DNA of 64,000 bases from Clostridia bacterium. Lineage in GTDB: Bacteria > Bacillota > DSM-521 > Neomoorellales > Neomoorellaceae. The notes under the pieces are model-generated. The model did no database searches. It had not been told where the DNA came from and worked only from the letters and a program-made list of their open reading frames with translations. The stretch lies in NCBI GenBank assembly GCA_030445865.1, contig JASUSV010000003.1:49134-113133 (forward strand). The letters run 5' to 3'. Below are positions 5,883 through 64,000 of the stretch, piece by piece; the first letter of the stretch is position 1, and every line of letters starts with the position of its first letter. The translations under genes were made by a program, and so were the position numbers.

Positions 5883-5940
5883 CTCTTTAGAAACGATCAG
5901 TCGCGGTTTCCGGGGATTTGTCGGATTAAGCTTACCTATT

Positions 5941-6195
5941 GGTGCTTCCGAAAGAAGTATGAAAATGCCGGGGATGCTGGCGTAAGGCGACTTTGGGCGA
6001 GCCCTGCGAGCCGTTGGCGAAACCGAGCCCGGAGGCGGGGCCGAGGACAGAGAGGCCTGCGGCCGGCCACTGAGGCAAGGATGCCGAATTGGCCGGGAAC
6101 CCCGCCGGAGGGCGAGGGGGAGCCATACGGATCGCTGGCAAGCCCATCTGGAGCCGTCGCCAGCGCCCCGGCACGGAGAATGTTTCGGAAGCATC
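5941..6195 (+). mobile_element. MITE-like element, copy 1 (255 bp)
   Basis: A non-coding element starting GGTGCTTCCGAAAG and ending TTTCGGAAGCATC; these termini are inverted repeats. Just inside lie TGCCGGGG-GCTGGCG and its complement, so the ends can form a long hairpin. The direct repeat ACCTATT flanks both sides (5934-5940 and 6196-6202). The last two bases of the element plus the first base of the right repeat form the TGA stop of the minus-strand Na/Pi transporter gene. Five other copies occur in the window. Confidence 0.88.
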
Positions 6196-7123
6196 ACCTA
6201 TTTTCCGGCAAGATCCAGGTGGTGACCCCGGCCAGAGCGCCTACCAGGGGCAGGGCGGCGAGGGAAGTAGCCACGTTAAAGAAAGTGTGAAAATGGGCTA
6301 TCTGCCTGGCCATCGAAGGGGAGAGCCAGGATAAAAAAGAGCTTATGATGCCCAAGAAAGGAAGGAAAATGAAGGCCCCGAAGATGTTAAGTAAAAAATG
6401 AGCCAGGGCCGTCTGCTGAGCGGCTCGGGAAGCAAAAACGGCGGCTGCAAGGGCGGTTATGCAGGTACCGATATTGGCCCCCAGCACCACGGTCAGGGCT
6501 GCAGGCAAGGGCAACAGCCCCTGGGCAGCCAATATCATAGTCAGGCTGGTTACAGCGCTGCTGGAATGCAGTAGGGCGGTTACGATTACGCCCGCCAGGA
6601 GTCCCTGCCAGGGGGAGGCTGCGGCAGCCGCCAGGGGGCCTAATAAGGCGGGCGCTTCCCTCCAGGGTTGCAGGGCCTGGGTCAGCAAAGATAGGCTGAG
6701 AAAGATCATCCCGGTGCCAAGAAGGGTTAAACCCAGGGGACGGCTGCGTGCCGGTATAAGGAGCAAGAGGGAAACAAGCAGCATGGGTAGGGCCAATTCC
6801 TCCAGGTCGAAGGCCAGAATTTGTACCGTAACGCAGGTTCCGATGTTGGCGCCGAGGATGAGACCCAGGCTTTGCCGGAAGGAAATTAGGCCGGCATCAA
6901 CAAGCCCAACGGTAAAGACGGTTGCGGCGGTGCTGGACTGTACCAGAGCCGTGGCCAGCGTACCCCAGCAGAGACCTCGCCAGGGAGTAGAGGCTGCCCG
7001 GCGCAAGATTTGCTCGAAGCGGTGCCGGGCCATGCCTGCCAGACCTTGCCGTAAAAACTGCATACCCATCAAAAGCAGGCCTACACCCAAACTCAACTGC
7101 AGTAAAGCTATAGACAAGGCCAT
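6194..7123 (-). CDS. Na+/phosphate cotransporter family protein (NptA/PhoU-less)
   Basis: A 309-residue integral membrane protein with the two inverted Na/Pi-cotransporter repeats. Each repeat carries a serine-rich re-entrant motif (LVQSSTAATVFTVG near residue 60, LLHSSSAVTSLTMI near residue 185) followed by GANIGTC. It should move phosphate or a related anion with sodium. The usual C-terminal PhoU-like domain is absent, so this is the short form. AGGAGG-type site GGGAGG precedes the ATG. The stop codon is formed by the junction with MITE copy 1; without the insertion the frame would end TAA at the same residue. Confidence 0.88.
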   Translation of the reverse strand: MALSIALLQLSLGVGLLLMGMQFLRQGLAGMARHRFEQILRRAASTPWRGLCWGTLATALVQSSTAATVFTVGLVDAGLISFRQSLGLILGANIGTCVTVQILAFDLEELALPMLLVSLLLLIPARSRPLGLTLLGTGMIFLSLSLLTQALQPWREAPALLGPLAAAAASPWQGLLAGVIVTALLHSSSAVTSLTMILAAQGLLPLPAALTVVLGANIGTCITALAAAVFASRAAQQTALAHFLLNIFGAFIFLPFLGIISSFLSWLSPSMARQIAHFHTFFNVATSLAALPLVGALAGVTTWILPENR

Positions 7124-17672: not shown

Positions 17673-17724
17673 AAATTGAGTTAAGGATTCGGCCTTTTAT
17701 GGCGAGAATAAAGGTAGAAGAGAA

Positions 17725-17980
17725 GGTGCTTGCAAAAGAAGTATGAAAATGCCGGGGATGCTGGCGTAAGGCGACTTTGGGTGCGCCTTGCGAGCCGTTG
17801 GCGAGACCGAGCCCGGAGGCGGGGCCGAGGACAGAGAGGCTTGCGGCCGGCCACTGAGGCAGGGATGCTTTAATCCGGCCGGGAACCCCGCCGGAGGGCG
17901 AGGGGGAGCCTATGGCTCGCTGGCGAGCCCGAAAGATACCGGCGCCAGCGCCCCGGCATGGGGAATGTTTTGGAAGCATC
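17725..17980 (+). mobile_element. MITE-like element, copy 2 (256 bp)
   Basis: Same element as at 5941, in the same orientation, but with diverged ends (GGTGCTTGCAAAAG and TTTTGGAAGCATC). An 8-base direct repeat GAAGAGAA flanks it (17717-17724 and 17981-17988). It lies between the perR terminator and the FapA-like gene. An open frame that appears to extend that gene upstream runs into this element and is not real. Confidence 0.88.
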
Positions 17981-18007
17981 GAAGAGAAGGCTAGGGGGTT
18001 GGGCTTA

Positions 18008-20005
18008 ATGGCTGGTAAAAAAATAAAGGTGCAGGGCCCGAGTGTAGAAGAAGCCCTGGCTGAGGCCTCTGCTTTATTAGGGGTGGAACCCGGGAGCTTA
18101 AATTATCAGGTAATCGCGGAAGCGAGTAAAGGTTTTCTGGGCCTAGGAAAACGGCCCGCCGTGATTGAGGTTTGGGTGGAGGCACCAGAGGAAGGTGAAG
18201 ATAATAAATCATCAGAGGAGGCCACCCCGCCGCCCCACGGCCGGTGCGGCCGGGTTTGGGTTGAAAACGGCCAAATCAAGGTTGTTGACGGTCTGGAAGG
18301 GCCGTTGCCGGTAATAATACCTGTGCCTGAAATAGAATTGATCGTGGATGGCGAAATAGTTCGGGAAGAAGCCCAGGTTCGCGCTGCCAGCAAGCTCGAG
18401 GTACGCCCCCGTTTGGAGGAGGAACCGGGTAACTGGAAAATCGAAATATCTCCTGATGGCCTGACGGCTACGCTCTACTGGCAACCCAAAGTACTTAAGA
18501 CCTGGGAGCTTTTAGACGCCCAACCCTCGCCACGTTTGCAACTAAAGACAAGGGAAGTAAGGAAGACTTTACCTCCTTTTGGCCCGGACGAACTCCGGGT
18601 CAGGTTGAAAGAATTAAATATAACCTATGGCATAGATGAAAATGCCCTTCAAGAAGCCTGCTCCGCTACGGCTCCCCAGCAGTTGGTCCTGGCCAGGGGC
18701 AGGCCGCCGCAACCGGGGAAGGACGCCTGGATAGAATATTTCTTCTTAATGGAAGAAGCGGCCAGGGTAGAGGTTGATGAAGAAGAAAAAGTAGACTATC
18801 GCGAGATGATCATCCGGTCCTCGGTAGCGGCAGGAGAAGTGCTTGCCGTTAAACATCCTGCCTTGCCCGGTGAAGCAGGGATGAGCGTAACCGGGAAAGA
18901 AATTCCGCCTCCGGAACCCAGGGACGTTATTTTAGTAGCAGGTAAAGGGGTTCGGGTAATTGAGAACGGCTTCAAATGTATTGCTACCCAGGAGGGTCGG
19001 CCTGTCGTGCGCCAGCGCCAGGGCCAGGTAATTATCGAAGTGGTGCCCGTTTTTTTGCATCGCGGGGATGTGGATCTGGCTTCCGGTAACCTGAAATTTA
19101 AGGGCAGCATAGAAATCACGGGCAGCGTTACCGAAACCATGGTTGTTGAGGCTACCCGGGACATTAAAATTATGGGTGACGTAGCTCAGGCGACTATCCG
19201 GGCAGGCGGGTCCCTCACCATCCAGCGCAATTGTATTGGCTCCATTTTAATAGCCGGCGGTTTAAGTAGTTTTTATCAGGGAGCCCAAAATATTTTAAGC
19301 GATGTAGTCGCCCAGTTAACCCAGCTCGTTCAAGCCTTAGAGCAGATTGGCAAAGACCCTAGTTTCCAAAGATCGGCTGTGAATAATTTGGGGAGTGGCT
19401 ATTTGATAAGTATTTTGTTGCAAAATAAATTCCGGCGTCTGCCGGAGCTGTCCCAGGAATTAGAGGCTCTGATCCAAACGGCTCCTAAAGATATGGTTGA
19501 AGAAAAGCTCCTGGATTTTAGCCAGAATCTGAGACGATCTTTTAAATCGGCGGTTACCATGCAGGCATTGAAGGCGGAAAATATTAGGGAGTACCAGGCC
19601 GCAGCCTCGGAGCTGCTCGCTTTTTGTCAAGATTTTCCCAAGACGGGCCACGTAATTTTAAATTACGCCTTGAATAGTAAAATTCAGGCAGGTGGTAACG
19701 TCAAAATTACCGGCCGCGGTTGCTATAGTACCGAGATCGTAGCCGGCGGCAAAGTAGAAATCCAGGGCATTTTCCGCGGTGGGAGCATTACAGCCGGCGC
19801 CGACGTAATAGTAAAAGAGGTGGGCTCCAGCGGTGGCACCCGTAGTAAAATTCGCGTACCGGATAAAGCTACAATTAAAATCGGCAGGGCCTGGGCCAAT
19901 ACCACTTTGCAGGTTGGCAGGTACCAGCGGACCCTAGATACCGAGATGAGTCAAGTCATGGTGTACCTTAACAGCGACGGAGAGCTGGTGTTTGGTGTAG
20001 CATAG
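18008..20005 (+). CDS. FapA-family (DUF342) protein with N-terminal Jag domain
   Basis: A 665-residue protein. Residues 1 to about 55 are a Jag-N domain (KVQGPSVEEALAEASALLG, SKGFLGLGKRPAVIEV). The rest is the FapA/DUF342 fold with a beta-helical region (GNLKFKGSIEITGSV, VVEATRDIKIMGDV, ATIRAGGSLTIQRN, KIQAGGNVKITGRGC, EIVAGGKVEIQGIFRGGSI) split by a coiled-coil insert at about residues 435-555. DUF342 proteins are linked to surface polymers, flagella and polarity; the function is not settled. ATG 18008 is used, since earlier codons lie in MITE copy 2. Confidence 0.78.
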   Translation: MAGKKIKVQGPSVEEALAEASALLGVEPGSLNYQVIAEASKGFLGLGKRPAVIEVWVEAPEEGEDNKSSEEATPPPHGRCGRVWVENGQIKVVDGLEGPLPVIIPVPEIELIVDGEIVREEAQVRAASKLEVRPRLEEEPGNWKIEISPDGLTATLYWQPKVLKTWELLDAQPSPRLQLKTREVRKTLPPFGPDELRVRLKELNITYGIDENALQEACSATAPQQLVLARGRPPQPGKDAWIEYFFLMEEAARVEVDEEEKVDYREMIIRSSVAAGEVLAVKHPALPGEAGMSVTGKEIPPPEPRDVILVAGKGVRVIENGFKCIATQEGRPVVRQRQGQVIIEVVPVFLHRGDVDLASGNLKFKGSIEITGSVTETMVVEATRDIKIMGDVAQATIRAGGSLTIQRNCIGSILIAGGLSSFYQGAQNILSDVVAQLTQLVQALEQIGKDPSFQRSAVNNLGSGYLISILLQNKFRRLPELSQELEALIQTAPKDMVEEKLLDFSQNLRRSFKSAVTMQALKAENIREYQAAASELLAFCQDFPKTGHVILNYALNSKIQAGGNVKITGRGCYSTEIVAGGKVEIQGIFRGGSITAGADVIVKEVGSSGGTRSKIRVPDKATIKIGRAWANTTLQVGRYQRTLDTEMSQVMVYLNSDGELVFGVA

Positions 20006-46888: not shown

Positions 46889-47968
46889 ATGCTGGAATTT
46901 GACGAAGGCGAATTTAACCAGTTTGCCACTATAAAGGTAGTAGGGGTTGGAGGGGGCGGCAGTAATGCCATTAACCGTATGATCGGTGCGGGGTTAAAAG
47001 GGGTGGAATTTATCAGCGTTAATACCGACGCCCAGGCCCTGCGCCTTTGCCAGGCGGAACAGAAAATCCAGATCGGGGCCAAGCTAACTAAAGGCCTAGG
47101 AGCCGGCGCCAACCCCGAGATCGGCAAAAAAGCGGCGGAAGAAAGTTATGAGGAATTGATCCAGCGCCTGCAAGGAGCAGACATGGTCTTTGTTACTGCC
47201 GGTATGGGCGGCGGTACGGGCACCGGCGGTGCTCCGGTGGTGGCGGCAGCAGCCAAGGAAGTAGGAGCCCTCACCGTCGGCGTAGTTACCCGTCCCTTTT
47301 CCTTCGAAGGGCGCAGGCGGGCGCAGCAGGCGGAAAGCGGCATAGCCGAACTCCGTTCCAAAGTAGATACCCTGATTGTCATTCCCAACGACCGCCTGCT
47401 CCAGGTAGCCGATAAGCAGACCTCCATTACCGAGGCATTTCGCATCGCCGATGATGTCCTTCGCCAGGGCGTGCAAGGTATCTCCGATTTAATTACCGTG
47501 CCCGGCCTGATTAACCTGGACTTTGCCGATGTAAAAACCATAATGACGGATACGGGATCGGCTTTAATGGGTATCGGCCGGGCGACCGGCGAGAAGCGGG
47601 CGGTGGAGGCGGCCAAGATGGCCATCTCCAGTCCTTTGCTGGAGACTTCTATTGAGGGCGCCCGCGGCGTCCTGCTCAACATTACCGGCGGCCCCAATTT
47701 GACCCTTTTTGAAGTCAATGAAGCTGCCGAAATTATTGCGGCGGCCGTTGATCCCGAGGCCAATATTATCTTCGGCGCGGTTATTGATGAAAATCTTAAG
47801 GACGAAGTGAGGGTGACGGTTATTGCTACCGGCTTTGAGCCCAGGAGCGAGGCCAGCCGCCAGGTAGCTGCCGCGCGGGAAATCGAGATCAAACCTTTTG
47901 ATTTAAACGACCTGGATATACCGGCTTTTTTAAGGCACGGCAGCGGGTTAAATTTTAATAAGAAATAG
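46889..47968 (+). CDS. ftsZ: Cell division GTPase FtsZ
   Basis: FtsZ forms the division ring. The 359-residue protein has [16 protein letters not shown] near the start, the tubulin signature [15 protein letters not shown] near residue 109, the T7 loop region [11 protein letters not shown] and the C-terminal tail peptide [11 protein letters not shown] that binds FtsA and SepF. A terminator follows. Confidence 0.98.
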
Positions 47969-47989
47969 GCTTTAAATTCCGGTAACTTT

Positions 47990-48018
47990 AAAAGGCGTTT
48001 CTTACAAACGCCTTTTTT
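47990..48018 (+). terminator. Terminator after ftsZ
   Basis: AAAGGCGTTT (47991-48000) pairs with AAACGCCTTT around a short loop, followed by more T. It ends the dcw transcript. Confidence 0.9.
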
Positions 48019-48030
48019 AATACCTAAATA

Positions 48031-48063
48031 CTGACAAATTTTACCAAAACACTTGGCTATAAT
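48031..48063 (+). promoter_or_regulatory. Candidate Spo0A-activated spoIIG promoter
   Basis: CTGACA (48031-48036) and TATAAT (48058-48063) are 21 bases apart, which is too long for a normal SigA promoter but close to the 22-base spacing known for the Bacillus spoIIG promoter. The TGACAAA sequence read on the other strand is TTTGTCA, close to a Spo0A box. MITE copy 3 lies between this promoter and spoIIGA. Confidence 0.6.
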
Positions 48064-48119
48064 ATTTTTAGTCATTAAACTGGGGCAGATTTCATATCTA
48101 TGGTAATAATTAGATACCA

Positions 48120-48374
48120 GGTGCTTCCGAAAGAAGTATGAAAATGCCGGGGATGCTGGCGTAAGGCGACTTTGGGCGAGCCCTGCGAGCCGTTGGCGAG
48201 ACCGAGCTCGGAGGCGGGGCCGAGGGCATGGAGGCCCGAGGCCGGCCATCGAGGCAGGATGCCGAATTGGCCGGGAACCCCGCCTTAAGGCGCGAGGGGG
48301 AGCCTACGGATCGCTGGCGAGCCCATCTGGAGCCGTCGCCAGCGCCCCGGCACGGGGAATGTTTCGGAAGCATC
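48120..48374 (+). mobile_element. MITE-like element, copy 3 (255 bp)
   Basis: Full-length plus-oriented copy with GGTGCTTCCGAAAG and TTTCGGAAGCATC termini. AGATACC occurs on both sides (48112-48118 and 48375-48381). It lies in the spoIIGA leader. Its interior has some differences from copy 1 (CGAGGGCATGGAGGC in place of CGAGGACAGAGAGGC). Confidence 0.88.
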
Positions 48375-48405
48375 AGATACCGTGCCGGAGGTCAGGCTTG
48401 GGGCT

Positions 48406-49326
48406 ATGAGGCAGGTGATTTACCTCGATGTCGTCCTGGGCATCAACCTCTTGATGGATTACATCATCCTCTGGGCCACAGCTAAATTGGGGCAGCTTCC
48501 TGTTTCCGGCTGGCGTTTGCTAGCCGGAGCTGCAGCAGGGGCTGCTTATTCCTTGTTGTTGGTCCTGCCGGTTAACGGTATACCTATAAGCTTTTTCCTT
48601 AAAATACTTTTTTCCCTGGTTATGATTTTAATATCTTTCTACCCTCTAACCTGGCGGCGTTTCTGGCAGATTTTTGCTTATTTTTACCTGGTGGCCTTTG
48701 TCATGGGAGGGGCTATAGTAGGGGCCATATATCTTTGGGGGAGCCGGGAAATAGCTGCTTCTACTGTGGGCGGCGCTATAGTATTGGCCGGCAGTATCCA
48801 CTATACCTGGCTCCTGGCGGGGCTGGCCGCAGCCATCCTCCTGTCCTGCTGGGGTGCGGTGTTTATAAAGAAAAATTTCTGGCAGAGCATTTTGCGCGTT
48901 CCGTTGGTAATCAGTATAGGCGGCAGGCGCCTGGCCGTAAAGGCCCTGGTAGATACGGGCAACAGCCTGCTCGATCCCCTAACCAGGAGGCCGGTCATAA
49001 TCGTAGAGTATAGCGCCATAAAGAGCCTCCTGCCAACGGAATTATGCCGGGAATTTGACAGCCAGCCCGACCCTGATTTAAGTAAAATTATTACTTCCCT
49101 AGAGGGGACCCCTTTAGCCGACAAGGTTCACCTCATCCCTTTCATTTCTTTGGGCAAAAAAAACGGCATGCTCCTGGGCTTAAGGCCGGAAGAGGTCGTG
49201 CTGTTGGTAGAAAACCGGCTAGTCAAGGTTAAAGACGTTGTTCTGGGCATATATCAACATCGCCTTTCGCCTGAAGGTAATTACCGCGCTTTGCTGCACC
49301 CGGATTTACTTCAGATGAATATTTAA
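48406..49326 (+). CDS. spoIIGA: Sporulation sigma-E processing peptidase SpoIIGA
   Basis: SpoIIGA is the membrane aspartic protease that cuts pro-SigE in the mother cell. The 306-residue protein has five N-terminal membrane segments starting MRQVIYLDVVLGINLLMDY and a C-terminal protease domain with the active-site motif ALVDTGNSLLDPLT near residue 180. ATG 48406 gives the canonical start; in-frame GTG 48382 is at the edge of the MITE flank. sigE follows. Confidence 0.94.
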   Translation: MRQVIYLDVVLGINLLMDYIILWATAKLGQLPVSGWRLLAGAAAGAAYSLLLVLPVNGIPISFFLKILFSLVMILISFYPLTWRRFWQIFAYFYLVAFVMGGAIVGAIYLWGSREIAASTVGGAIVLAGSIHYTWLLAGLAAAILLSCWGAVFIKKNFWQSILRVPLVISIGGRRLAVKALVDTGNSLLDPLTRRPVIIVEYSAIKSLLPTELCREFDSQPDPDLSKIITSLEGTPLADKVHLIPFISLGKKNGMLLGLRPEEVVLLVENRLVKVKDVVLGIYQHRLSPEGNYRALLHPDLLQMNI

Positions 49327-49341
49327 AGGGGGCGGTTGGAG

Positions 49342-50061
49342 ATGTGGCAAAGGTTACGCCTGTTCTGGCTCGGTATTTACTGGCGTTTATTATTAAAATA
49401 CCCCTGGCTGGGCGAGATCTTTTATGTCGGAAGCACCGAGGCCCTTCCCCCGCCCTTGACGAGTGATGAGGAAAATCGCCTGCTTAGCCGGCTTGAATGC
49501 GGGGATGCCGCGGTCAAGGCGGTGCTCATCGAGCGCAACCTGCGCCTGGTGGTCTATATCGCCCGCAAATTTGAGAATACCGGGGTAGGTATTGAAGATC
49601 TGGTTTCCATCGGCACCATCGGCCTTATCAAGGCGGTTAACACCTTCGATCCCTGCAAGCGCATTAAACTCGCAACTTATGCCTCCCGCTGCATTGAGAA
49701 CGAAATCTTAATGCACCTGCGGCGCAACAGCAAGACCAAAGCCGAGATCTCCTTTGACGAGCCTTTGAATATTGACTGGGACGGCAATGAACTTCTTCTT
49801 TCAGATGTCCTAGGGACGGATAACGATATTATTTATAAAACCATTGAGGAAGAAGTTGACCGCAAGTTGCTCCGGGCGGCCATGCGCAAGCTTACGCCCC
49901 GGGAGCGTAAAATTATGGAGTTTCGCTTTGGCCTGGTGGACGGCGTGGAAAAAACCCAGAAAGAAGTAGCCGATATTCTGGGCATTTCCCAGTCCTACAT
50001 CTCACGCCTCGAAAAAAGGATTATCAAGCGCTTGCGCAAAGAAATAATGCGTCTGGAATAA
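49342..50061 (+). CDS. sigE: Mother-cell sigma factor SigE (pro-form)
   Basis: SigE controls early mother-cell gene expression. The 239-residue protein has a hydrophobic pro-sequence of about 27-30 residues ([20 protein letters not shown]) that SpoIIGA removes, then sigma-70 regions 2 ([32 protein letters not shown]) and 4 ([20 protein letters not shown]). ATG 49342 has GGGGG nine bases upstream; TTG 49336 is also in frame. Confidence 0.95.
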
Positions 50062-50081
50062 AATAGAAATTAAATCTGTAA

Positions 50082-50113
50082 CCGCCGCTTTCGCTGGAAG
50101 CGGCGGTTTTTTT
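50082..50113 (+). terminator. Terminator after sigE
   Basis: CCGCCGCTT (50082-50090) pairs with AAGCGGCGG (50098-50106), followed by seven T. Confidence 0.93.
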
Positions 50114-50114
50114 C

Positions 50115-50143
50115 GTATAAAAGCTAAAAGGTATGGTAATAAT
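50115..50143 (+). promoter_or_regulatory. Candidate SigF/SigG promoter of sigG
   Basis: GTATA (50115-50119) and GGTAATAAT (50135-50143) are 15 bases apart and match the forespore SigF/SigG pattern. The site directly follows the sigE terminator and precedes sigG by 46 bases. Confidence 0.65.
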
Positions 50144-50188
50144 TTAAGTGCATACTGCCCAGGCAATAAGGGGTGAAAGACCCTAAAA

Positions 50189-50959
50189 GTGCTTAACAAA
50201 GTTGAAATATGCGGAGTAAATACCTCGAAGCTGCCCCTCCTTACCAATGAAGAAATGCGCAGTCTTTTTCAGCAGGCCAAAGCAGGGGACAATGCAGCCA
50301 GGGAAAAGCTTATCAAAGGAAATTTACGCCTGGTCTTAAGCGTAATCCAGCGTTTTACCAACCGGGGCGAGTATGTAGACGACCTTTTTCAGGTCGGTTG
50401 CATCGGTTTAATGAAGGCTATAGATAATTTCGACCTGGAGCAAAACGTCAAGTTTTCGACCTATGCCGTTCCCATGATTATCGGCGAGATCCGCCGTTAT
50501 CTAAGGGATAATAATCCCATACGGGTCAGCCGTTCTCTCCGGGATGTTGCCTATAAGGCCTTGCAGGTGCGCGATGCGCTGGTTAATAAGCTTTCGCGGG
50601 AGCCGTCGGTAAGCGAAATAGCTGCCGAGTTAAATTATCCCCAGGAAGAAGTGATCTTTGCCCTTGATGCCATCCAGGAACCGGTTTCCCTTTTTGAACC
50701 CATTTACCATGATGGCGGAGATCCTATCCTGGTAATGGACCAGATCAGCGATGAAAAAAATCAAGACGGCGCCTGGACGGAAAGCATAGCCGTACGCGAA
50801 GCTTTAAATAAACTGAGCGAGAGGGAAAGGCTCATTTTAACCCTCCGCTTTTTTGAAGGTAAAACTCAGATGGAGGTGGCCGATGAGATCGGCATCTCCC
50901 AGGCCCAGGTTTCCCGCCTGGAAAAGGCCGCCTTGAACCATATCCGAAAATATATTTAA
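50189..50959 (+). CDS. sigG: Forespore sigma factor SigG
   Basis: SigG controls late forespore genes such as SASP genes. The 256-residue protein starts MLNKVEICGVNTSKLPLLTN, the hallmark SigG N-terminus, followed by regions 2 (LRLVLSVIQRF, DDLFQVGCIGLMKAIDNF), 3 (REPSVSEIAAELN) and 4 (TQMEVADEIGISQAQVSRLE). GTG start. Confidence 0.96.
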   Translation: MLNKVEICGVNTSKLPLLTNEEMRSLFQQAKAGDNAAREKLIKGNLRLVLSVIQRFTNRGEYVDDLFQVGCIGLMKAIDNFDLEQNVKFSTYAVPMIIGEIRRYLRDNNPIRVSRSLRDVAYKALQVRDALVNKLSREPSVSEIAAELNYPQEEVIFALDAIQEPVSLFEPIYHDGGDPILVMDQISDEKNQDGAWTESIAVREALNKLSERERLILTLRFFEGKTQMEVADEIGISQAQVSRLEKAALNHIRKYI

Positions 50960-50975
50960 AAAAGGTGATGTGTTT

Positions 50976-51602
50976 TTGAGGAAAAGGTTGTTTTTCATTT
51001 TAATTATAGCTATAAATCTGTTTATTCTTTACGGCCTGGCGCGGGAAAGAGCGTTACCGGCCTACAATTCCCATAACCTTATACGCCTGCATATAGTGGC
51101 CAATAGCGATGCGCCGCTGGATCAGCAGTTAAAATACGAGGTGCGCGACGCCCTGTTGGCTAGAATGGGCCGGCAGCTGGTTTCGGCGCGCAATCTTCAG
51201 GAAGCCAGGGCTTTTATAAACGAAAATTTGAGCGTTATTGAAAAGGTAGCACAGGAGGAAATTGAAGGCCGGGGTAAGGACTATCCTGTCAGGGTCGAAT
51301 TCGGCCATTTTAAATTTCCTGATCGCGCTTACGGCCAGGTGGTCCTGCCTGCCGGGGAGTACGAGGCGGTAAAAGTCATCATCGGCTCAGGAAAAGGGCA
51401 GAACTGGTGGTGCGTGCTTTTTCCTCCTTTATGCCTTGTCGATATTGCCGAAACAAAGGCCGGCGAGGGCGGCAATGATGCCTGGCCTGTTATGCAGGTC
51501 CCGGTTTCCCCGAAAACGGCCCCGGTAGAAGTGCGTTTTAAGTTACTGGAACTCTGGCACACCTCCAGAAATCGCCTGGCAGGAATTTTTAACAACCTTT
51601 AA
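50976..51602 (+). CDS. spoIIR: Stage II sporulation protein R (SpoIIR)
   Basis: SpoIIR is the secreted forespore signal that activates SpoIIGA. The 208-residue protein has a signal peptide (residues 1-20, RLFFILIIAINLFILYGLA) and the family segments NLIRLHIVANSDAPLDQQLKY and YEAVKVIIGSGKGQNWWCVLFPPLC. TTG 50976 is used with AAAGGTG eight bases upstream; GTG 50970 also works. Its place with spoIIGA, sigE and sigG is coherent. Confidence 0.93.
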   Translation: MRKRLFFILIIAINLFILYGLARERALPAYNSHNLIRLHIVANSDAPLDQQLKYEVRDALLARMGRQLVSARNLQEARAFINENLSVIEKVAQEEIEGRGKDYPVRVEFGHFKFPDRAYGQVVLPAGEYEAVKVIIGSGKGQNWWCVLFPPLCLVDIAETKAGEGGNDAWPVMQVPVSPKTAPVEVRFKLLELWHTSRNRLAGIFNNL

Positions 51603-51613
51603 ACAGAAAAAGG

Positions 51614-51651
51614 CCACCCCCGGCATATGATTCAAATAAGGATGGGGGTGG
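51614..51651 (+). promoter_or_regulatory. Hairpin that may hide the ylmC ribosome site
   Basis: CCACCCCC (51614-51621) can pair with GGGGGTGG (51644-51651), and the second arm is the G-rich ribosome-binding region just before the ylmC start. Translation could depend on melting of this stem. Confidence 0.45.
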
Positions 51652-51656
51652 GGCAG

Positions 51657-51926
51657 GTGGTTAGAATCAGCGATCTCCGCGTGCGGGAGGTTATTAACGT
51701 TATCGATGGCCGTCGCCTGGGACCTATCAAAGATATTGAACTGGATGTAGAGGAAGGTAAAATCCAGGCGCTCATCCTTCCGGGTATGAACGGCAGGTTT
51801 TTGGGTTTATTTGGCCGCAACGAAGATGCCATTATCCCCTGGGAAAAAGTCGTCAAGGTTGGCGTGGATGTAATTTTGGTGGAAGCTTATAGTTTCGCCA
51901 CGCCTCATCGTAAAGATAAATCCTGA
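51657..51926 (+). CDS. ylmC: YlmC/YmxH family PRC-barrel sporulation protein
   Basis: An 89-residue protein starting VVRISDLRVREVINVIDGRRLG with the PRC-barrel beta pattern (DIELDVEEGKIQALILPG). The YlmC/YmxH family is spore-related and common near sigE-sigG. GTG 51657 is chosen because the peptide then begins at the conserved RISDL; an ATG 51627 in frame lies upstream of the ribosome site. A terminator follows. Confidence 0.85.
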   Translation: MVRISDLRVREVINVIDGRRLGPIKDIELDVEEGKIQALILPGMNGRFLGLFGRNEDAIIPWEKVVKVGVDVILVEAYSFATPHRKDKS

Positions 51927-51929
51927 TAG

Positions 51930-51951
51930 ACCGGGCTGAGGCCCGGTTTTT
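51930..51951 (+). terminator. Terminator after ylmC
   Basis: ACCGGGC (51930-51936) pairs with GCCCGGT (51941-51947), followed by TTTTT. Confidence 0.88.
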
Positions 51952-52005
51952 GCTGTTCCGGCCTGGTATCCGGCATCTCCACTTTCTACCCCCTTCCGAA
52001 GGGCG

Positions 52006-52265
52006 GATGCTTCCGAAACATTCCCCTTGCCGGGGCGCTGGCGACGGCTCCAGATGGGCTCGCCAGCGAGCCGTATGGCTCCCCCTCGCGACTTAAGGCG
52101 GGGTTCCCGGCCGGATTTAAGCATCCTTGCCTCAGTGGCCGGCCGCAGGCCTCTCTGTCCTCGGCCCCGCCTCCGGGCTCGGTCTCGCCAACGGCTCGCT
52201 AAGGCTCGCCCTAAGTCGCCTTACGCCAGCATCCCCGGCATTTTCATACTTCTTTCGGAAGCACC
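52006..52265 (-). mobile_element. MITE-like element, copy 4 (reverse orientation, 260 bp)
   Basis: The only minus-oriented copy. Ends are GATGCTTCCGAAAC and CTTTCGGAAGCACC on the plus strand. Flanks GAAGGGCG (51998-52005) and GGAGGGCG (52266-52273) agree at 7 of 8 bases. It lies between the ylmC terminator and the second repeat before pgeF. Confidence 0.87.
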
Positions 52266-52296
52266 GGAGGGCGAAACTTTGTTATTTCTTAAGATA

Positions 52297-52388
52297 CCAC
52301 CCGTCGCCCCATCCCGTTCACCGCCGCCTCACTGCGGCTTCGCTTAGTTTGCCGAAGCCTCAAACCAAGTCGCCCTCCGCCTATATCC
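52297..52388 (-). repeat. Second repeat family, copy B
   Basis: The reverse complement matches 5790-5882 in two blocks (GATATAGGCGGAGGGCGA...TTTGAGG and GGCGGCGGTGAACGGGATGG, then GGCGACGG). The middle here holds a hairpin GGCTTCG...CGAAGCC. It lies next to MITE copy 4, as copy A lies next to MITE copy 1. No coding function is seen. Confidence 0.6.
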
Positions 52389-52428
52389 CCCAGCCTTAAA
52401 ATTGGGGATAACCTAGATTGCTGTTACC

Positions 52429-52458
52429 TTGTAGCCTACCGCCAGGATGTTATATAAT
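52429..52458 (+). promoter_or_regulatory. Promoter close to the pgeF start
   Basis: TTGTAG (52429-52434) and TATAAT (52453-52458) are 18 bases apart. The pgeF ATG at 52465 falls where transcription would begin, so the message may be leaderless. Confidence 0.6.
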
Positions 52459-52464
52459 GTACCC

Positions 52465-53241
52465 ATGAACCGGGTAGAGGTGCTTCGTTTTGATTTCTTA
52501 GAAAGCCGGGCGCCGGTCGTCGCTGCTTTTACCACCCGCAAGGGCGGCGAAAGCGGCCCGCCCTTTGCGACCTTAAATCTAGGGTTAAATACCGGCGACG
52601 CCCCGGAAAAAGTGCTGGCCAACAGGAGGCGGGTCGCCGAAGTCCTGGCTATCTCCCTCGATAGCTGGGTGGTTGGAGAGCAGGTGCACGGGGACGGCGT
52701 TGCCGTTATCACCCGATCCGAGGCTGGCAGAGGTACAACTACGAGTGAGAGTTCTTTGAAAAGCACAGACGCCCTGGTGACGGAAGAAAAAGGTTTGGCC
52801 CTGGTCGCTTTTTTTGCCGATTGCGTGCCGGTATATATTGTAGACCCGGTGCGGCAGGTTATCGGGCTGGCCCATGCCGGCTGGCGGGGAACCAGATTAA
52901 GGATCGCCGCCAGGACCGTTGAGGTTATGCAACAAAAATTCGCTGCTTCCCCTGACGGCTGCCTGGCCCTTCTGGGGCCGTCTATCGGCCCCTGTTGCTA
53001 TGAAGTAGGACCGGAAGTTGCCGGCGAGTTTGCGCCCGAATTCCTCAAACCGCATAAAGGCCGCTGGCTGCTCGACCTCTGGAAAGCCAATATGAAAATC
53101 TTGTTACAGGCCGGGATTAAAGAAGCTAACATACATATTACCGGCATCTGTACTTGCTGCCACCCGGAACTATTTTACTCTTACCGGAGGGACGGTGGCC
53201 GCACCGGCAGGATGGGGGCCTTTTTGTGCCTAACAGCCTGA
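52465..53241 (+). CDS. pgeF: Peptidoglycan editing factor PgeF (YlmD, polyphenol-oxidase family)
   Basis: PgeF removes wrongly added amino acids from peptidoglycan precursors and is related to the laccase-domain YfiH proteins. The 258-residue protein has the zinc-site pieces GEQVHGDGV, FADCVPVYIVD, AHAGWRG and late C-C-HPEL (CTCCHPELFYSYRRDGGRTGR). ATG 52465 is used; ATG 52447 would start inside the -10 region. It has no ribosome site. It overlaps the next gene by 16 bases. Confidence 0.88.
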   Translation: MNRVEVLRFDFLESRAPVVAAFTTRKGGESGPPFATLNLGLNTGDAPEKVLANRRRVAEVLAISLDSWVVGEQVHGDGVAVITRSEAGRGTTTSESSLKSTDALVTEEKGLALVAFFADCVPVYIVDPVRQVIGLAHAGWRGTRLRIAARTVEVMQQKFAASPDGCLALLGPSIGPCCYEVGPEVAGEFAPEFLKPHKGRWLLDLWKANMKILLQAGIKEANIHITGICTCCHPELFYSYRRDGGRTGRMGAFLCLTA

Positions 53242-54206
53242 ATACCGTACTACCCCTACCGCCGTCGAGATTTTCCCGGCGCAAAAAAAGAACAGGCCGG
53301 CGCACTTTATTTTCTTTTGTCCTGTTCTGCCTCCTGGGCTGGCTGGTGACCGGCTGGGCCTGGCAGGCCTTTAACTGGAGGATGCTCAAGACAGAGAGGG
53401 TGTTTACGGGCACAATAACGGAAAATTTAGTGTTAGAGGGATTGATTTTTAGGGAGGAAACTATTTTAACGGCGCCGGTTACCGGTAAATTGGAGGAGGT
53501 AGCTAGAGAAGGTGAGAAAGTGCCCGCGGGCGCGCCGGTGGTTAAAATTTTCCCCGCCGCCACTTCCCCGGAGGGCGATAAGGTTTTCGTGTTAAAAGCT
53601 CCTTTTGCCGGGCAGATATGTTACCACCCGGACGGCCTGGAGAACGTCTTAAAGCCGGACCTTTTTGACAAAATTCCCCCGGAAGAAATAAAACGCCTGG
53701 CGAGGTTAGCCCAACCTGCGGACTTAAAGGATACGGTTACTGCGGGGCAGCCGGTGGTCCGGGTGACGAATAATTTGTTGCCGGCTTATTTTTTAGCCGA
53801 ATTCCCCGTTTTACCGGAGGGCTGGCAGGTAGGAAAAAATTTGAGCTTAAAATGGCAGGGCCAGGAAGAAAGGTTTCAGGCCGAGCTTTACCGCCTCCAA
53901 AAGGCCGCCAACGGCTGGCAGGCTTTATTCCAAATTGAACAATGGGGGGACGAGCTTTTTCATGCCCGCGAAGTGAAGGCCGAGGCTATATTTAAAATTT
54001 ACCGGGGAGTAGTGGTGCCGAAGGAGGCTCTAACCCGCGGCCCCGACGGCAAAACCTCGGTATATTTTTTAAGCGGTACGAGGATACGCATCAGGGAAGT
54101 GGAAGTTGTAGGCCTGGCGGGCGATAAGGCTGCGGTTAAGGGGCTGGAAGAAGGAACGGAAGTAGTAACCAACCCCAGGGTAGCCCGGCGGCTGGCTCAC
54201 GAATGA
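53226..54206 (+). CDS. HlyD-like membrane protein of the ylm region
   Basis: A 326-residue bitopic protein with a basic N-terminus (RRKKRTGRR), one membrane segment near residues 36-54, and a periplasmic-adaptor-type beta region (LEGLIFREETILTAPVTGKLEEVAREGEKV). Many Clostridia carry such a gene between pgeF and yggS; its role is unknown. GTG 53226 lies inside the end of pgeF. Confidence 0.7.
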   Translation: MPNSLNTVLPLPPSRFSRRKKRTGRRTLFSFVLFCLLGWLVTGWAWQAFNWRMLKTERVFTGTITENLVLEGLIFREETILTAPVTGKLEEVAREGEKVPAGAPVVKIFPAATSPEGDKVFVLKAPFAGQICYHPDGLENVLKPDLFDKIPPEEIKRLARLAQPADLKDTVTAGQPVVRVTNNLLPAYFLAEFPVLPEGWQVGKNLSLKWQGQEERFQAELYRLQKAANGWQALFQIEQWGDELFHAREVKAEAIFKIYRGVVVPKEALTRGPDGKTSVYFLSGTRIRIREVEVVGLAGDKAAVKGLEEGTEVVTNPRVARRLAHE

Positions 54207-54250
54207 TGCGGGGTTGAGACTACGAGTAATTCAGTTTTCGGAGGTAAAGT

Positions 54251-54940
54251 ATGTCTGAACTCGCGAAGCGGCTGGCACAGGTAAGAGAACGCATCGCTGC
54301 CGCGGCCAAAAGGGCAGGCCGCAGGCCGGAGGATATAACTCTGGTTGGAGTAACTAAAACCGTGCCGGTGGAAATAATTCAGGAAGCCGTGGCTGCAGGT
54401 TTGCGCGATCTGGGGGAAAATAGGGTACAGGAACTGGTGGCTAAGGAGCCCTTAATTAAAGGGGTAAACTGGCACATGATCGGCCACCTGCAGCGCAATA
54501 AGGTTAAACAAGTTTTGGGCAAAATATCCCTTTTACATTCCCTTGACAGCCTGGCCCTTGCCCGCGAGTTGGAAAAGCGGGCGGAAGCGGAGGGAAAGAG
54601 TCTCGAAGTACTGATAGAGGTTAACGTCGGCGGCGAAGAAACTAAGTTCGGGCTGCCGCCTGCCGCCGTAATCCCTTTCATTAAGGAAATAACTAATTTT
54701 CCTGCCTTGAAGCTCAGGGGGTTGATGACCGTTGCCCCCCTGGTGGACGATCCGGAGAAAGTAAGACCTGTTTTCCGCCGCATGGCTGCTTTAAAGCGGG
54801 AAGTGGAGGCTTTAAAGCTTCCGGGAGTCGAAATGCGTTACCTTTCCATGGGCATGACCAATGATTTTGAAGTGGCTATTGAAGAAGGAGCTAATATGGT
54901 TCGCATCGGTACGGCCATATTCGGTCCGCGACTTTTATAA
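54251..54940 (+). CDS. ylmE: PLP homeostasis protein YggS/YlmE
   Basis: A 229-residue PLP-binding protein that keeps free pyridoxal phosphate in balance. The PLP lysine is in LVGVTKTVP near residue 37; other family segments are LGENRVQEL, WHMIGHLQRNK, LIEVNVGGEETKFG and YLSMGMTNDFEVAIEEGA. It precedes sepF, as in Bacillus. Confidence 0.94.
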   Translation: MSELAKRLAQVRERIAAAAKRAGRRPEDITLVGVTKTVPVEIIQEAVAAGLRDLGENRVQELVAKEPLIKGVNWHMIGHLQRNKVKQVLGKISLLHSLDSLALARELEKRAEAEGKSLEVLIEVNVGGEETKFGLPPAAVIPFIKEITNFPALKLRGLMTVAPLVDDPEKVRPVFRRMAALKREVEALKLPGVEMRYLSMGMTNDFEVAIEEGANMVRIGTAIFGPRLL

Positions 54941-54953
54941 AGGGGGTCTGGCA

Positions 54954-55373
54954 ATGAGCTTCTGGCACAAATTTCTAAATTGGCTGGGCCTGGAAGCAGA
55001 AGACGATGAAAAAGCGCAGCGCGCCGAAGCCCCGGAATTCTCCGGCCAGCGCAAAATTATCAGCCTGCCTACGGCCCACCGCTCCTGGCGCCTTATCTTA
55101 TCCCGGCCTCACGCCTTCGAGCAGGCCAAAGAACTGGCCGAGCATTTAAGAAGCTTCAGGCCGCTGGTCGTTGACCTGGGCGGGCTTAACGGCGAGGAAG
55201 CTCAAAGACTGATCGATTTTTTAAGTGGGGCGACTTTTGCCCTGGGAGGCCAAGTGCGCAAAATAAACGGCGGCATTTTTCTTTTTGCGCCGAGTAACGT
55301 GGATATTAGCGGCGATTACCTTAGTCAGTTAGAATCCGAGCCGGCATGGGCCCGGATAATCCGCAAAGGATAA
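54954..55373 (+). CDS. sepF: Cell division protein SepF
   Basis: SepF binds FtsZ and the membrane and aligns filaments at the septum. The 139-residue protein has the N-terminal membrane helix MSFWHKFLNWLGLE, a short linker and the C-terminal domain (LILSRPHAFEQAKELAEHL, VVDLGGLNGEEAQRLIDFLSG). ATG 54954 has AAGGGGG upstream. MITE copy 5 starts six bases after the stop. Confidence 0.93.
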   Translation: MSFWHKFLNWLGLEAEDDEKAQRAEAPEFSGQRKIISLPTAHRSWRLILSRPHAFEQAKELAEHLRSFRPLVVDLGGLNGEEAQRLIDFLSGATFALGGQVRKINGGIFLFAPSNVDISGDYLSQLESEPAWARIIRKG

Positions 55374-55379
55374 GAAAGT

Positions 55380-55476
55380 GGTGCTTCCGAAAGAAGTATG
55401 AAAATGCCGGGGATGCTGGCGAGCCCATCTGGAGCCGTCGCCAGCGCCCCGGCACGGAGAATGTTTCGGAAGCATC
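55380..55476 (+). mobile_element. MITE-like element, copy 5 (97 bp internal-deletion form)
   Basis: Both ends match the 255 bp element, but everything between the internal GCTGGCG after TGCCGGGGAT and the later GCTGGCGAGCCC is missing, as if the two GCTGGCG repeats recombined. AGAAAGT flanks it (55373-55379 and 55477-55483). It sits inside the sepF-proC operon, directly after the sepF stop. Confidence 0.88.
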
Positions 55477-55505
55477 AGAAAGTGGGCTGGAGGTTTTAGG
55501 TTAAT

Positions 55506-56315
55506 ATGAGGGACGTTATTGGCTTTATCGGAGTCGGGGCTATGGGGGAAGCCCTGATCAGGGGAATTTTGAATGCCGGACTCGTGCCGGCGGAATCCAT
55601 CGTGGCCAGCGATATAGATGCTGCCAAAACCCGGGAGGTCGGGCGGCGGTACGGTATTCGGATATTGAAAACCAACCAGGAGGTTGTAAACGAGGCCGCT
55701 ACCGTTGTCCTGGCAGTTAAACCCCAGGTAATCCGGAGCGTTATCCAGGGGCTGGAAGTTACTAGAGAAAAGCTGATAATTTCTATAGCCGCCGGCATCA
55801 CCCTGGCCGATATGGAAGGCTGGCTGGGCCCAGATATTCCGGTCGTCCGGGTAGTCCCCAACACCCCCTGTCTCATCGGGGAAGGCGTTTCCGCCCTAGC
55901 GGGAGGTAAGGCTGCCACTTCGGAACACCTGGAGCGGGCACAGGAGATATTTGCCGCCGTCGGGCGGGTTGCAGTTTTGCCTGAAAATTTGCTGGACGCG
56001 GTGACGGCTCTGAGCAGCAGCGGCCCGGCCTACGTTTACCTTTTTATTGAAGCCTTGGCCGACGGCGGCGTCCGCGTTGGCTTGCCGCGTGACCTGGCTT
56101 TGGATTTTGCCGCCAGGACGGTTTTAGGCGCCGCCAAGATGGTTTTGCAGCAGGGGCACCCGGCAACTTTGAAAGATAAAGTGGCTTCGCCCGGGGGTAC
56201 AACTATTGCTGCCCTGGAAGTCCTAGAACAGGGTGCGGTACGGGGAGCCATCATCGGCGCAGTGCGCGCCGCTGCCGAGCGGGCCAGAGAATTGAGCAGG
56301 GAGCACGAGAGATGA
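55506..56315 (+). CDS. proC: Pyrroline-5-carboxylate reductase ProC
   Basis: ProC makes the last step of proline synthesis, reducing pyrroline-5-carboxylate with NAD(P)H. The 269-residue protein has the dinucleotide fold GFIGVGAMGEALIRG, AVKPQVI, VRVVPNTPCLIGEG and ALSSSGPAYVYLFIEALADGG. Its stop overlaps yggT. Confidence 0.95.
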   Translation: MRDVIGFIGVGAMGEALIRGILNAGLVPAESIVASDIDAAKTREVGRRYGIRILKTNQEVVNEAATVVLAVKPQVIRSVIQGLEVTREKLIISIAAGITLADMEGWLGPDIPVVRVVPNTPCLIGEGVSALAGGKAATSEHLERAQEIFAAVGRVAVLPENLLDAVTALSSSGPAYVYLFIEALADGGVRVGLPRDLALDFAARTVLGAAKMVLQQGHPATLKDKVASPGGTTIAALEVLEQGAVRGAIIGAVRAAAERARELSREHER

Positions 56316-63837: not shown

Positions 63838-64000
63838 GGTGCTTCCGAAAGAAGTATGAAAATGCCGGGGATGCTGGCGTAAGGCGACTCTGGGCGAGCT
63901 TTGCGAGCCGTTGGCGAGACCGAGCCCGGAGGCGGGGCCGAGGGCATGGAGGCCCGAGGCCGGCCATTGAGGCAGGATGCTTAAATCCGGCCGGGAACCC
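63838..64000 (+). mobile_element. MITE-like element, copy 6 (cut by window end)
   Basis: Begins GGTGCTTCCGAAAG four bases after the rluD stop, in plus orientation. The first 163 bases agree closely with the other copies, with the CGAGGGCATGGAGGC variant shared with copy 3. The right end lies outside the window. Confidence 0.87.

What the first reader, a model, noticed from the sequence alone, without database searches (positions are those of the whole stretch)
5941..6195. A high-density MITE-like family: six copies in 64 kb
Copies at 5941, 17725, 48120, 52006 (reverse), 55380 and 63838 share inverted termini GGTGCTTCCGAAA / TTTCGGAAGCATC and inner GC-rich inverted repeats. The five complete copies have 7-8 bp flanking direct repeats. 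The copies carry no credible protein, so a transposase elsewhere must have moved them. The strong hairpin ends also make them possible RNA or termination elements.
Basis: seen in the sequence. Interest (0 to 1): 0.85.

Follow-up and report, generated by a model that had tools for sequence, protein, structure and literature searches.

The report
Mobile elements that target Shine-Dalgarno sites
The repeats are small mobile DNA elements that mostly sit, in one orientation, just in front of the ribosome-binding (Shine-Dalgarno) sequence of genes, and distant insertion sequences of the group whose transposase likely moves them sit in the same place, so that transposase likely chooses its landing sites by reading this translation signal.

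Summary
In detail: six copies lie in the window, five complete with 7-8 bp repeats; the draft genome (2.08 Mb, family of Moorella) has at least 50 such right ends. They are MITEs. At 68 of 81 fetched right ends (two genomes) a frame of 40 aa or more starts 15-40 nt further on, same strand, against 9 of 62 outward from left ends. A G-rich hexamer, the Shine-Dalgarno (SD) sequence, begins at about +12, just after the 8-bp duplication: strong in 62 of 81 right flanks, 0 of 62 left flanks.

A related genome has a 1376-bp insertion sequence with nearly the same ends and a zinc-ribbon, IS6-like transposase. Distant relatives in five further genomes follow the rule: 20 of 20 perfect 8-bp duplications, SD-like tract at +9 to +15 in 18 of 21 flanks on the transposase-start side, 2 of 20 on the other. 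Relatives show an empty site before spoIIGA.

Best reading: a branch of zinc-finger IS6-like elements inserts beside SD sequences, and these MITEs are its passengers. How the SD is recognised is inferred. The searched papers showed no precedent. The structured core covaries, but nothing shows that it acts as RNA.

The parts
5941..6195 (+). MITE copy 1, full length; flanking repeat ACCTATT at 5934-5940 and 6196-6202; the exception in the window: no strong G tract and no gene start past its right end
17725..17980 (+). MITE copy 2, full length; flanking repeat GAAGAGAA (8/8) at 17717-17724 and 17981-17988
17993..17998 (+). SD-like tract AGGGGG at +13 past the right end of copy 2; start codon of the downstream gene at 18008
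48120..48374 (+). MITE copy 3, full length; flanking repeat AGATACC(A/G) 7/8 at 48112-48119 and 48375-48382; empty site in relatives
48387..48392 (+). SD-like tract GGAGGT at +13 past the right end of copy 3; start codon of spoIIGA (gene name is my reading) at 48406
52006..52265 (-). MITE copy 4, full length; flanking repeat CGCCCTYC 7/8 at 52266-52273 and 51998-52005; right end faces the low-coordinate side
51989..51997 (-). G tract GGAAGGGGG (minus strand) next to the right end of copy 4 although no frame of 40 aa starts there
55380..55476 (+). MITE copy 5, short 97-bp form without the core; flanking repeat AGAAAGTG (8/8 if the first G of the element is counted) at 55373-55380 and 55477-55484
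55489..55494 (+). SD-like tract GGAGGT at +13 past the right end of copy 5; start codon of proC (gene name is my reading) at 55506
63838..64000 (+). MITE copy 6, left part only; the contig ends inside it, so its right end cannot be examined

Best explanation
The repeats are MITEs that mostly sit beside Shine-Dalgarno sequences, and a long zinc-ribbon IS6-like transposase likely moves them and likely reads the Shine-Dalgarno DNA to choose the site and the orientation. Shown: inverted ends, 8-bp target duplications, a G-rich hexamer about 12 nt past the right end, a start codon about 25 nt past it, one prevailing orientation, an empty site in relatives, and an insertion sequence with nearly the same ends in a related genome. 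Shown as well: distant insertion sequences of this transposase group lie in the same place and polarity. Inferred: that the placement reflects target choice and not later selection; that the purine tract in DNA is what is recognised; that the N-terminal zinc ribbons do it; that insertion uses an 8-bp stagger and that the unequal ends set the polarity, so that the end next to the transposase start faces the gene. A likely benefit is that the element lands in a leader, spares the coding sequence and leaves the Shine-Dalgarno sequence intact.
For: Target duplication: 32 of 46 two-ended copies at 7/8 or better, shuffled pairings 0.5%. Placement: a frame of at least 40 aa starts 15-40 nt past the right end in 68 of 81, outward from left ends in 9 of 62; 58 of 81 within 20-32 nt, where 3.7% of random noncoding positions and strands of the window lie before a called gene (nominal binomial P 4e-64, which ignores chance frames, so the left-end control is the fairer one). 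G tract: G at 57-75% in +12 to +17, C at 2-12%; strong tract (score at least 4.5) in 62 of 81 right flanks, 13 of 81 in a control 60 nt downstream, 0 of 62 left flanks; tract position sd 2.1 and start-codon position sd 4.1 in the 68 with a frame; of the 13 right ends without such a frame, 10 still have a strong tract. Distant insertion sequences (G371 and G365 members 25-27% identical to the G072 one): 20 of 20 perfect 8-bp duplications; tract (score at least 3.5) at +9 to +15 in 18 of 21 start-side flanks, 17 of 21 at score 4.5, and 2 of 20 other-side flanks; a frame of at least 40 aa starts there in 17 of 21; in G072 the tract stands in 11 of 11. Control: 11 rows from G017, where the same core has other ends and about 9-bp duplications: 0 of 11 have a best tract of 4.5 at +9 to +15. 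Ends of the related insertion sequence: left end 21 of 27 bases, right end first 15 bases as in the MITE (read by eye). Its right ends lie next to SD-like tracts in 2 of 2 copies in G018, in the relic in the own genome and, behind a tiny remnant, in Moorella mulderi. Empty site before spoIIGA in 14 readable relatives.
Against: No experiment. Exceptions: copy 1 of the window has neither strong tract nor gene; L178 in G365 has no tract. No match to the transposase was found in the window's genome, only a truncated relic, so the helper is inferred from a related genome. There the transposase lies in two overlapping frames, and the flanks of the one complete copy do not match each other. Seven of the 13 right ends counted as without a frame have an ATG 23-27 nt on with a short frame and may be short or decayed genes; of the other six, five have a strong tract, two of them off position. 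A G tract in noncoding DNA is not enough to explain the sites: in the window only 22 of 106 such tracts lie at gene starts by my crude gene calls. In the G017 control two rows (L154, L155) have strong tracts that begin at +7, one with a frame 40 nt on, and three rows have mis-set ends. The NCBIfam IS6 model scores the G018 transposase 51 bits, below its cut-off of 125. The hexamer score and the +9 to +15 limits were chosen after seeing MITE data; the lower threshold of 3.5 was set after I had seen part of those flanks.
Confidence: 0.84

Rival explanations
1. The elements insert widely, and selection leaves only those in leaders, in the orientation that does no harm or helps expression.
For: Genes are dense (90% coding), so most other sites would be lost. 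Noncoding G tracts alone predict too few gene starts (22 of 106), so something besides the tract matters.
Against: Selection does not explain the fixed spacing: insertion 50-200 nt upstream or in the other orientation should be just as harmless. A strong tract is kept at 10 of 13 right ends without a frame of 40 aa (5 of 6 if ends with a nearby ATG are set aside). The short form, whole insertion sequences and the MITE share the placement although their interiors differ. In G017 the same core with other ends is not so placed. In G072 the tract stands at 11 of 11 copies of a 1226-bp insertion sequence with perfect duplications.
Confidence: 0.1
2. The structured core is a working RNA in the leader of many genes, a mobile riboregulator; transposition only spreads it.
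For: Core of nearly constant length, 189-213 nt in the 56 kept sequences, shared by genera with different ends; 40 of 65 pairs changed on both sides, 89% of cells paired against 33-49% in slid controls; it mostly lies in a leader, same strand as the gene.
Against: Both strands fold equally well (z -8.4 and -8.3). In the 63 pairs predicted from both strands G-U and A-C cells are equal, 85 and 83; each strand's own structure leans its own way, 108 to 83 and 94 to 121. So pairing could be kept in DNA. The short 97-bp form lacks the core and sits in the same kind of place. In G017 the core is not next to gene starts. Downstream genes look mixed (spoIIGA, proC, L32, motB; my reading of frames). No Rfam match.
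Confidence: 0.15
3. The repeats are transcription terminators.
For: Strong hairpins; copies 5 and 6 start a few bases after a stop codon.
Against: No terminator-like site inside the three copies in 47900-55700; the right ends carry no T run (by eye); many stand directly before genes.
Confidence: 0.02

Closest known systems
Long zinc-finger IS6-like insertion sequences: clades VII and VIII of Harmer and Hall 2019 (PMC6807381), clades h and i of Varani 2021 (PMC7986276), e.g. ISNth1, ISTps1, ISHahy6 (both papers: passages only)
   Same: DDE domain, N-terminal zinc finger, 8-bp duplications where recorded, 1226-1761 bp; the G072 element has the length (1226 bp) and frame (353 aa) listed for ISNth1; sequence identity to ISNth1 was not tested
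   Different: Term searches of both main texts found no 'ribosom' or (2021 paper) 'shine'. The element related to the window's MITEs scores below the IS6 cut-off and has the zinc ribbons in a separate frame. Harmer and Hall argue that the longer elements do not belong in the IS6/IS26 family.
Two MITEs listed in the IS6 family (MITEBth2, MITEHarch3; 227 and 336 bp)
   Same: IS6-type MITEs of similar size
   Different: Seen only as a mention; their ends and placement were not examined.
Elements with a fixed type of landing site, e.g. insertion sequences that target REP palindromes (PMC1525189, start of abstract in the listing), group IIC introns behind terminators (recalled)
   Same: Use a frequent, non-coding genomic signal as a safe site
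   Different: Here the signal is the translation-initiation sequence, with a fixed polarity towards the gene.

Membership tests
MITE | terminal inverted repeats | tested here: met
   GRTGCWTCCGAAA ends
MITE | target-site duplication | tested here: met
   32 of 46 at 7/8 or better
MITE | short, no transposase gene | tested here: met
   97-424 bp; no transposase-like frame among the ORFs that overlap the copies, read by eye
MITE | ends shared with an autonomous element | tested here: met
   1376-bp element in G018 with nearly the same ends; whether it is active is unknown
MITE | empty sites in relatives | tested here: met
   one site, spoIIGA upstream: 14 of 16 other genomes with a match are readable there and lack the element; L249 and L250 are not readable at the site; other sites not tested
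Long zinc-finger IS6-like group (the helper) | IS240/IS6-type DDE domain | tested here: met
   PF13610 1.8e-8, 35.1 bits over cut-off 27; D109, D165, E199 invariant in six sequences
Long zinc-finger IS6-like group (the helper) | N-terminal zinc-ribbon extension | tested here: met
   separate 109-aa frame with CxxC motifs in L118 (best Pfam match 23.8 bits, just below its cut-off of 25.3); one zinc ribbon fused to the DDE domain in P0002
Long zinc-finger IS6-like group (the helper) | 8-bp duplication | tested here: inconclusive
   met for the MITEs and for distant relatives (20 of 20); the one complete copy in G018 has unmatched flanks
IS6 family sensu NCBIfam NF033587 | score over the curated cut-off of 125 bits | tested here: not met
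   51 bits for L118; the relative in G072 meets it with 192-196 bits
Structured regulatory RNA | covarying paired structure | tested here: met
   the structure was derived from the same alignment
Structured regulatory RNA | pairing kept at the RNA level (G-U favoured over A-C) | tested here: not met
   85 and 83 cells in the shared pairs
Intrinsic terminator | hairpin followed by T run | tested here: not met
   three copies

The most novel reading that the evidence does not exclude
A whole branch of bacterial transposases, found in several families of the phylum, finds its target through the translation-initiation signal itself: it needs a working Shine-Dalgarno context, perhaps through the 16S rRNA tail or an initiating ribosome on the nascent transcript, and not just a purine tract in DNA. 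That would explain why 68 of 81 insertions are at frame starts while only 22 of 106 noncoding G tracts are.
Probability: 0.12. Interest if true: 0.95.

Novelty: new variant of a known kind. Interest (0 to 1): 0.82.

Why it matters
If right, the Shine-Dalgarno sequence, a signal before many genes of these bacteria, serves as a genome-wide landing mark for a group of insertion sequences. That would be a new way to choose safe sites, would put structured DNA into dozens of leaders, and would give a simple target code (8-bp duplication, about 3 bp, purine hexamer, start codon) that can be tested with one protein and one plasmid. It also gives a placement rule for annotating leaders and MITEs in these genomes.

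Tried and rejected
Rfam at gathering and permissive thresholds: nothing for the element (one weak match, PyrR205 at 13.7 bits, E 2.3, that starts at the element's right edge, taken as chance). Riboswitch likeness of the core (cobalamin) was a passing thought and had no support. Terminator: rejected. Structure prediction of P0002: mean pLDDT 39, not used. Solved structures: no credible relative (two matches, E 0.64 and 0.75). Short IS6 elements as a control: besides G072 only two of 199 genomes had a match at the threshold, both partial, so this control is missing. Automatic search for ends of relatives worked for two loci already set by hand and otherwise gave no or spurious solutions; it was not counted. 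Moorella flanks: the script mis-set the ends; read by eye, 10 of 18 loci have an SD-like tract just past the conserved right part. In one search the G017 rows number 11 from 10 of the 11 loci given (L159 twice, L152 none); ends are mis-set in L156, L158 and one of the L159 rows. The scan of genome contigs for the transposase found one locus, M. mulderi.

Rows dropped: one search sorted 136 pattern rows into 79 right ends (73 MITE-like, 6 that share only the end motif, among them three ends of the insertion sequence), 42 left ends and 15 others; L015 and L032 were put back by hand, giving 81. One row with too little sequence was left out. The loci are the copies that I fetched, not every copy in the two genomes; the first search scored 40 of 89 candidates.

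Full report
What is there. The six copies are real and at the stated places. Copy 6 is cut because the window ends with its contig. In the whole draft genome the left end occurs at 39 places and the right end at 39, with no match for the reversed controls. Several contigs begin or end inside the element, so many copies are split. By distinct right flanks I count 52 right ends in 2.08 Mb, 50 of them MITE-like. Lengths are mostly 253-260 bp, with a 97-bp form that lacks the middle. A genome of another family in the order, G018, holds 39 matches; its full-length ones share both ends at up to 89% identity.

They move. Of 46 copies with both ends, 32 match at 7 or 8 of 8 flanking bases; shuffled pairings reach that in 0.5%. 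The best test of movement is the empty site. Before spoIIGA, 14 of 16 other genomes of the family are readable, and there the conserved sequence (GGTAATAATTAG in most, with small changes in others) runs on to the gene without the element, whereas the window carries copy 3 at that point. L249 and L250 are not readable there; L248 has a core match elsewhere in its locus.

Where they land. Reading on from the right end, there is the 8-bp duplication, then about three bases, then a G-rich hexamer, then a start codon. At 81 right ends (52 in G000, 29 in G018) G reaches 57-75% at +12 to +17. A frame of at least 40 aa starts 15-40 nt past the right end in 68 of 81, with a peak at 22-29 nt; outward from left ends this is 9 of 62. 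In the range 20-32 nt it is 58 of 81, where 3.7% of noncoding positions and strands of the window lie before a called gene (crude calls, 68 genes). A strong tract is present in 62 of 81 right flanks, 13 of 81 control stretches 60 nt on and 0 of 62 left flanks. In the 68 with a frame the tract is placed more tightly (sd 2.1 nt) than the start codon (sd 4.1), and a strong tract is present at 10 of the 13 right ends without a frame. Seven of these 13 have an ATG at 23-27 nt with a short frame, so only six are clear non-gene sites; five of the six have a strong tract, two of them off position. So the tract, more than the gene, seems to be the anchor, but on few cases. Copy 4 of the window is such a case: tract but no gene. 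Copy 1 has neither. Copies 2, 3 and 5 stand before an unnamed 'MAGKKIKV...' gene, spoIIGA and proC (gene names are my reading of the frames).

Who moves them. Searching for isolated ends gave other MITE variants and, in G018, a 1376-bp element with the ends GGTCCTTCCGAATC and GATGCTTCCGAAAC. It carries a 276-aa frame with a DDE domain of the IS240/IS6 type and an overlapping 109-aa zinc-ribbon frame; the database relative P0002 has a zinc ribbon and the DDE domain in one frame. A truncated relic lies in the own genome (L115) and another in Moorella mulderi. All four readable right ends of these elements lie next to SD-like tracts; in M. mulderi a 19-bp end-to-end remnant lies in between. The genome G000 gave no match to the transposase, so the helper may be lost or unassembled.

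The rule in distant relatives. A sample of 398 genomes of the phylum gave long relatives in 9 genomes with one sequence and in 20 with an alignment. For five genomes the ends could be set by comparing copies. Every duplication that can be read is perfect (20 of 20). The flank on the transposase-start side has the tract at +9 to +15 in 18 of 21 at a score of 3.5 (17 of 21 at 4.5) and the other flank in 2 of 20; a frame of at least 40 aa starts 12-44 nt on in 17 of 21. Of the three misses, two have G tracts a few bases outside the limits and one (L178) has none. I had seen some of these flanks before I set the score. In G072 the tract stands at 11 of 11 copies of a 1226-bp element, with a frame at 10 of 11. 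Two copies in G371 could not be read because their contigs end there.

A natural control. In genome G017 the same structured core sits between other ends (CTGAGTTATCCCC / GGGGATACGCCAG) with about 9-bp duplications, perfect in three rows. There 0 of 11 rows have their best tract at +9 to +15 with a score of 4.5; two have strong tracts that begin at +7. This points to the ends and their transposase, not the core, as the cause of the placement. The control is small and three of its rows have mis-set ends.

The core. Across 39 sequences (of 56 kept) from G000, G018, G017 and Moorella-type genomes, 89% of cells in a 65-pair structure are standard pairs, 40 pairs change on both sides, and no slid version comes near (the structure was derived from the same alignment). 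Both strands fold equally well, and in the 63 pairs predicted from both strands G-U and A-C cells are equal, 85 and 83. So a paired structure is kept, but an RNA role is not shown. The short form has the same kind of site and flanking repeats without the core.

Limits. Everything is sequence evidence. Noncoding G tracts in the window are at gene starts in only 22 of 106 cases, fewer than the insertions; either selection prunes the rest or recognition needs more than the tract. Selection against harmful sites surely acts as well. A control with short IS6 elements is missing.

Literature. The two analyses of the IS6 family describe the zinc-finger clades; term searches of their main texts found no 'ribosom' in either and no 'shine' in the 2021 one (abstract and passages only). 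Searches of the library for such targeting showed no precedent in the listings. The library lacks most subscription papers, so this is no proof of novelty.

Noticed in passing
L152-L161 (G017), e.g. L159, L161: The same structured core rides between entirely different inverted ends with about 9-bp target duplications: one cargo on two transposon types.
   Followed up: partly
A2 alignment: Strong covariation in the core without excess of G-U over A-C cells in the shared pairs, as if pairing were kept in DNA rather than RNA.
   Followed up: partly
L141 about 2690-2710 (Moorella mulderi): A 19-bp end-to-end remnant (GGTGCATCCGAGAAACATC) with its own flanking repeat lies between the IS relic and the Shine-Dalgarno sequence.
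   Followed up: no
L082 (G000:C87, about 2742-2999): A copy abuts the right end of what looks like an older, decayed copy, and its flanking repeat is made of that older end, so the same gene start was perhaps hit twice.
   Followed up: no
L065 (Moorella), inside the core: A hairpin insertion of about 60 bp with arms AGCACTCAACTCA / TGAGTTGAGTGCT inside the core, perhaps another tiny mobile element; CAGCACTCAA also appears in two G018 copies (L119, L123).
   Followed up: no
window 6194-6196: The stop codon of the minus-strand gene 6194-7123 spans the junction of copy 1 and its target duplication, so the insertion probably changed the end of this gene.
   Followed up: no
L118 1120-1449 and 377-1207, minus strand: Zinc-ribbon and DDE parts of the transposase lie in two overlapping frames; either a frameshift mutation or programmed frameshifting.
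   Followed up: no
L118 and L099 (G018): The right flank of the complete IS copy (GTAAATAT) matches the left flank of an IS end on another contig (AGTAAATA) in a shifted register, which suggests recombination between copies or a wrong join in the assembly.
   Followed up: no
L061 1252-1305, minus strand: Sub-threshold match to the guanidine-II riboswitch (24.5 bits, cut-off 32).
   Followed up: no
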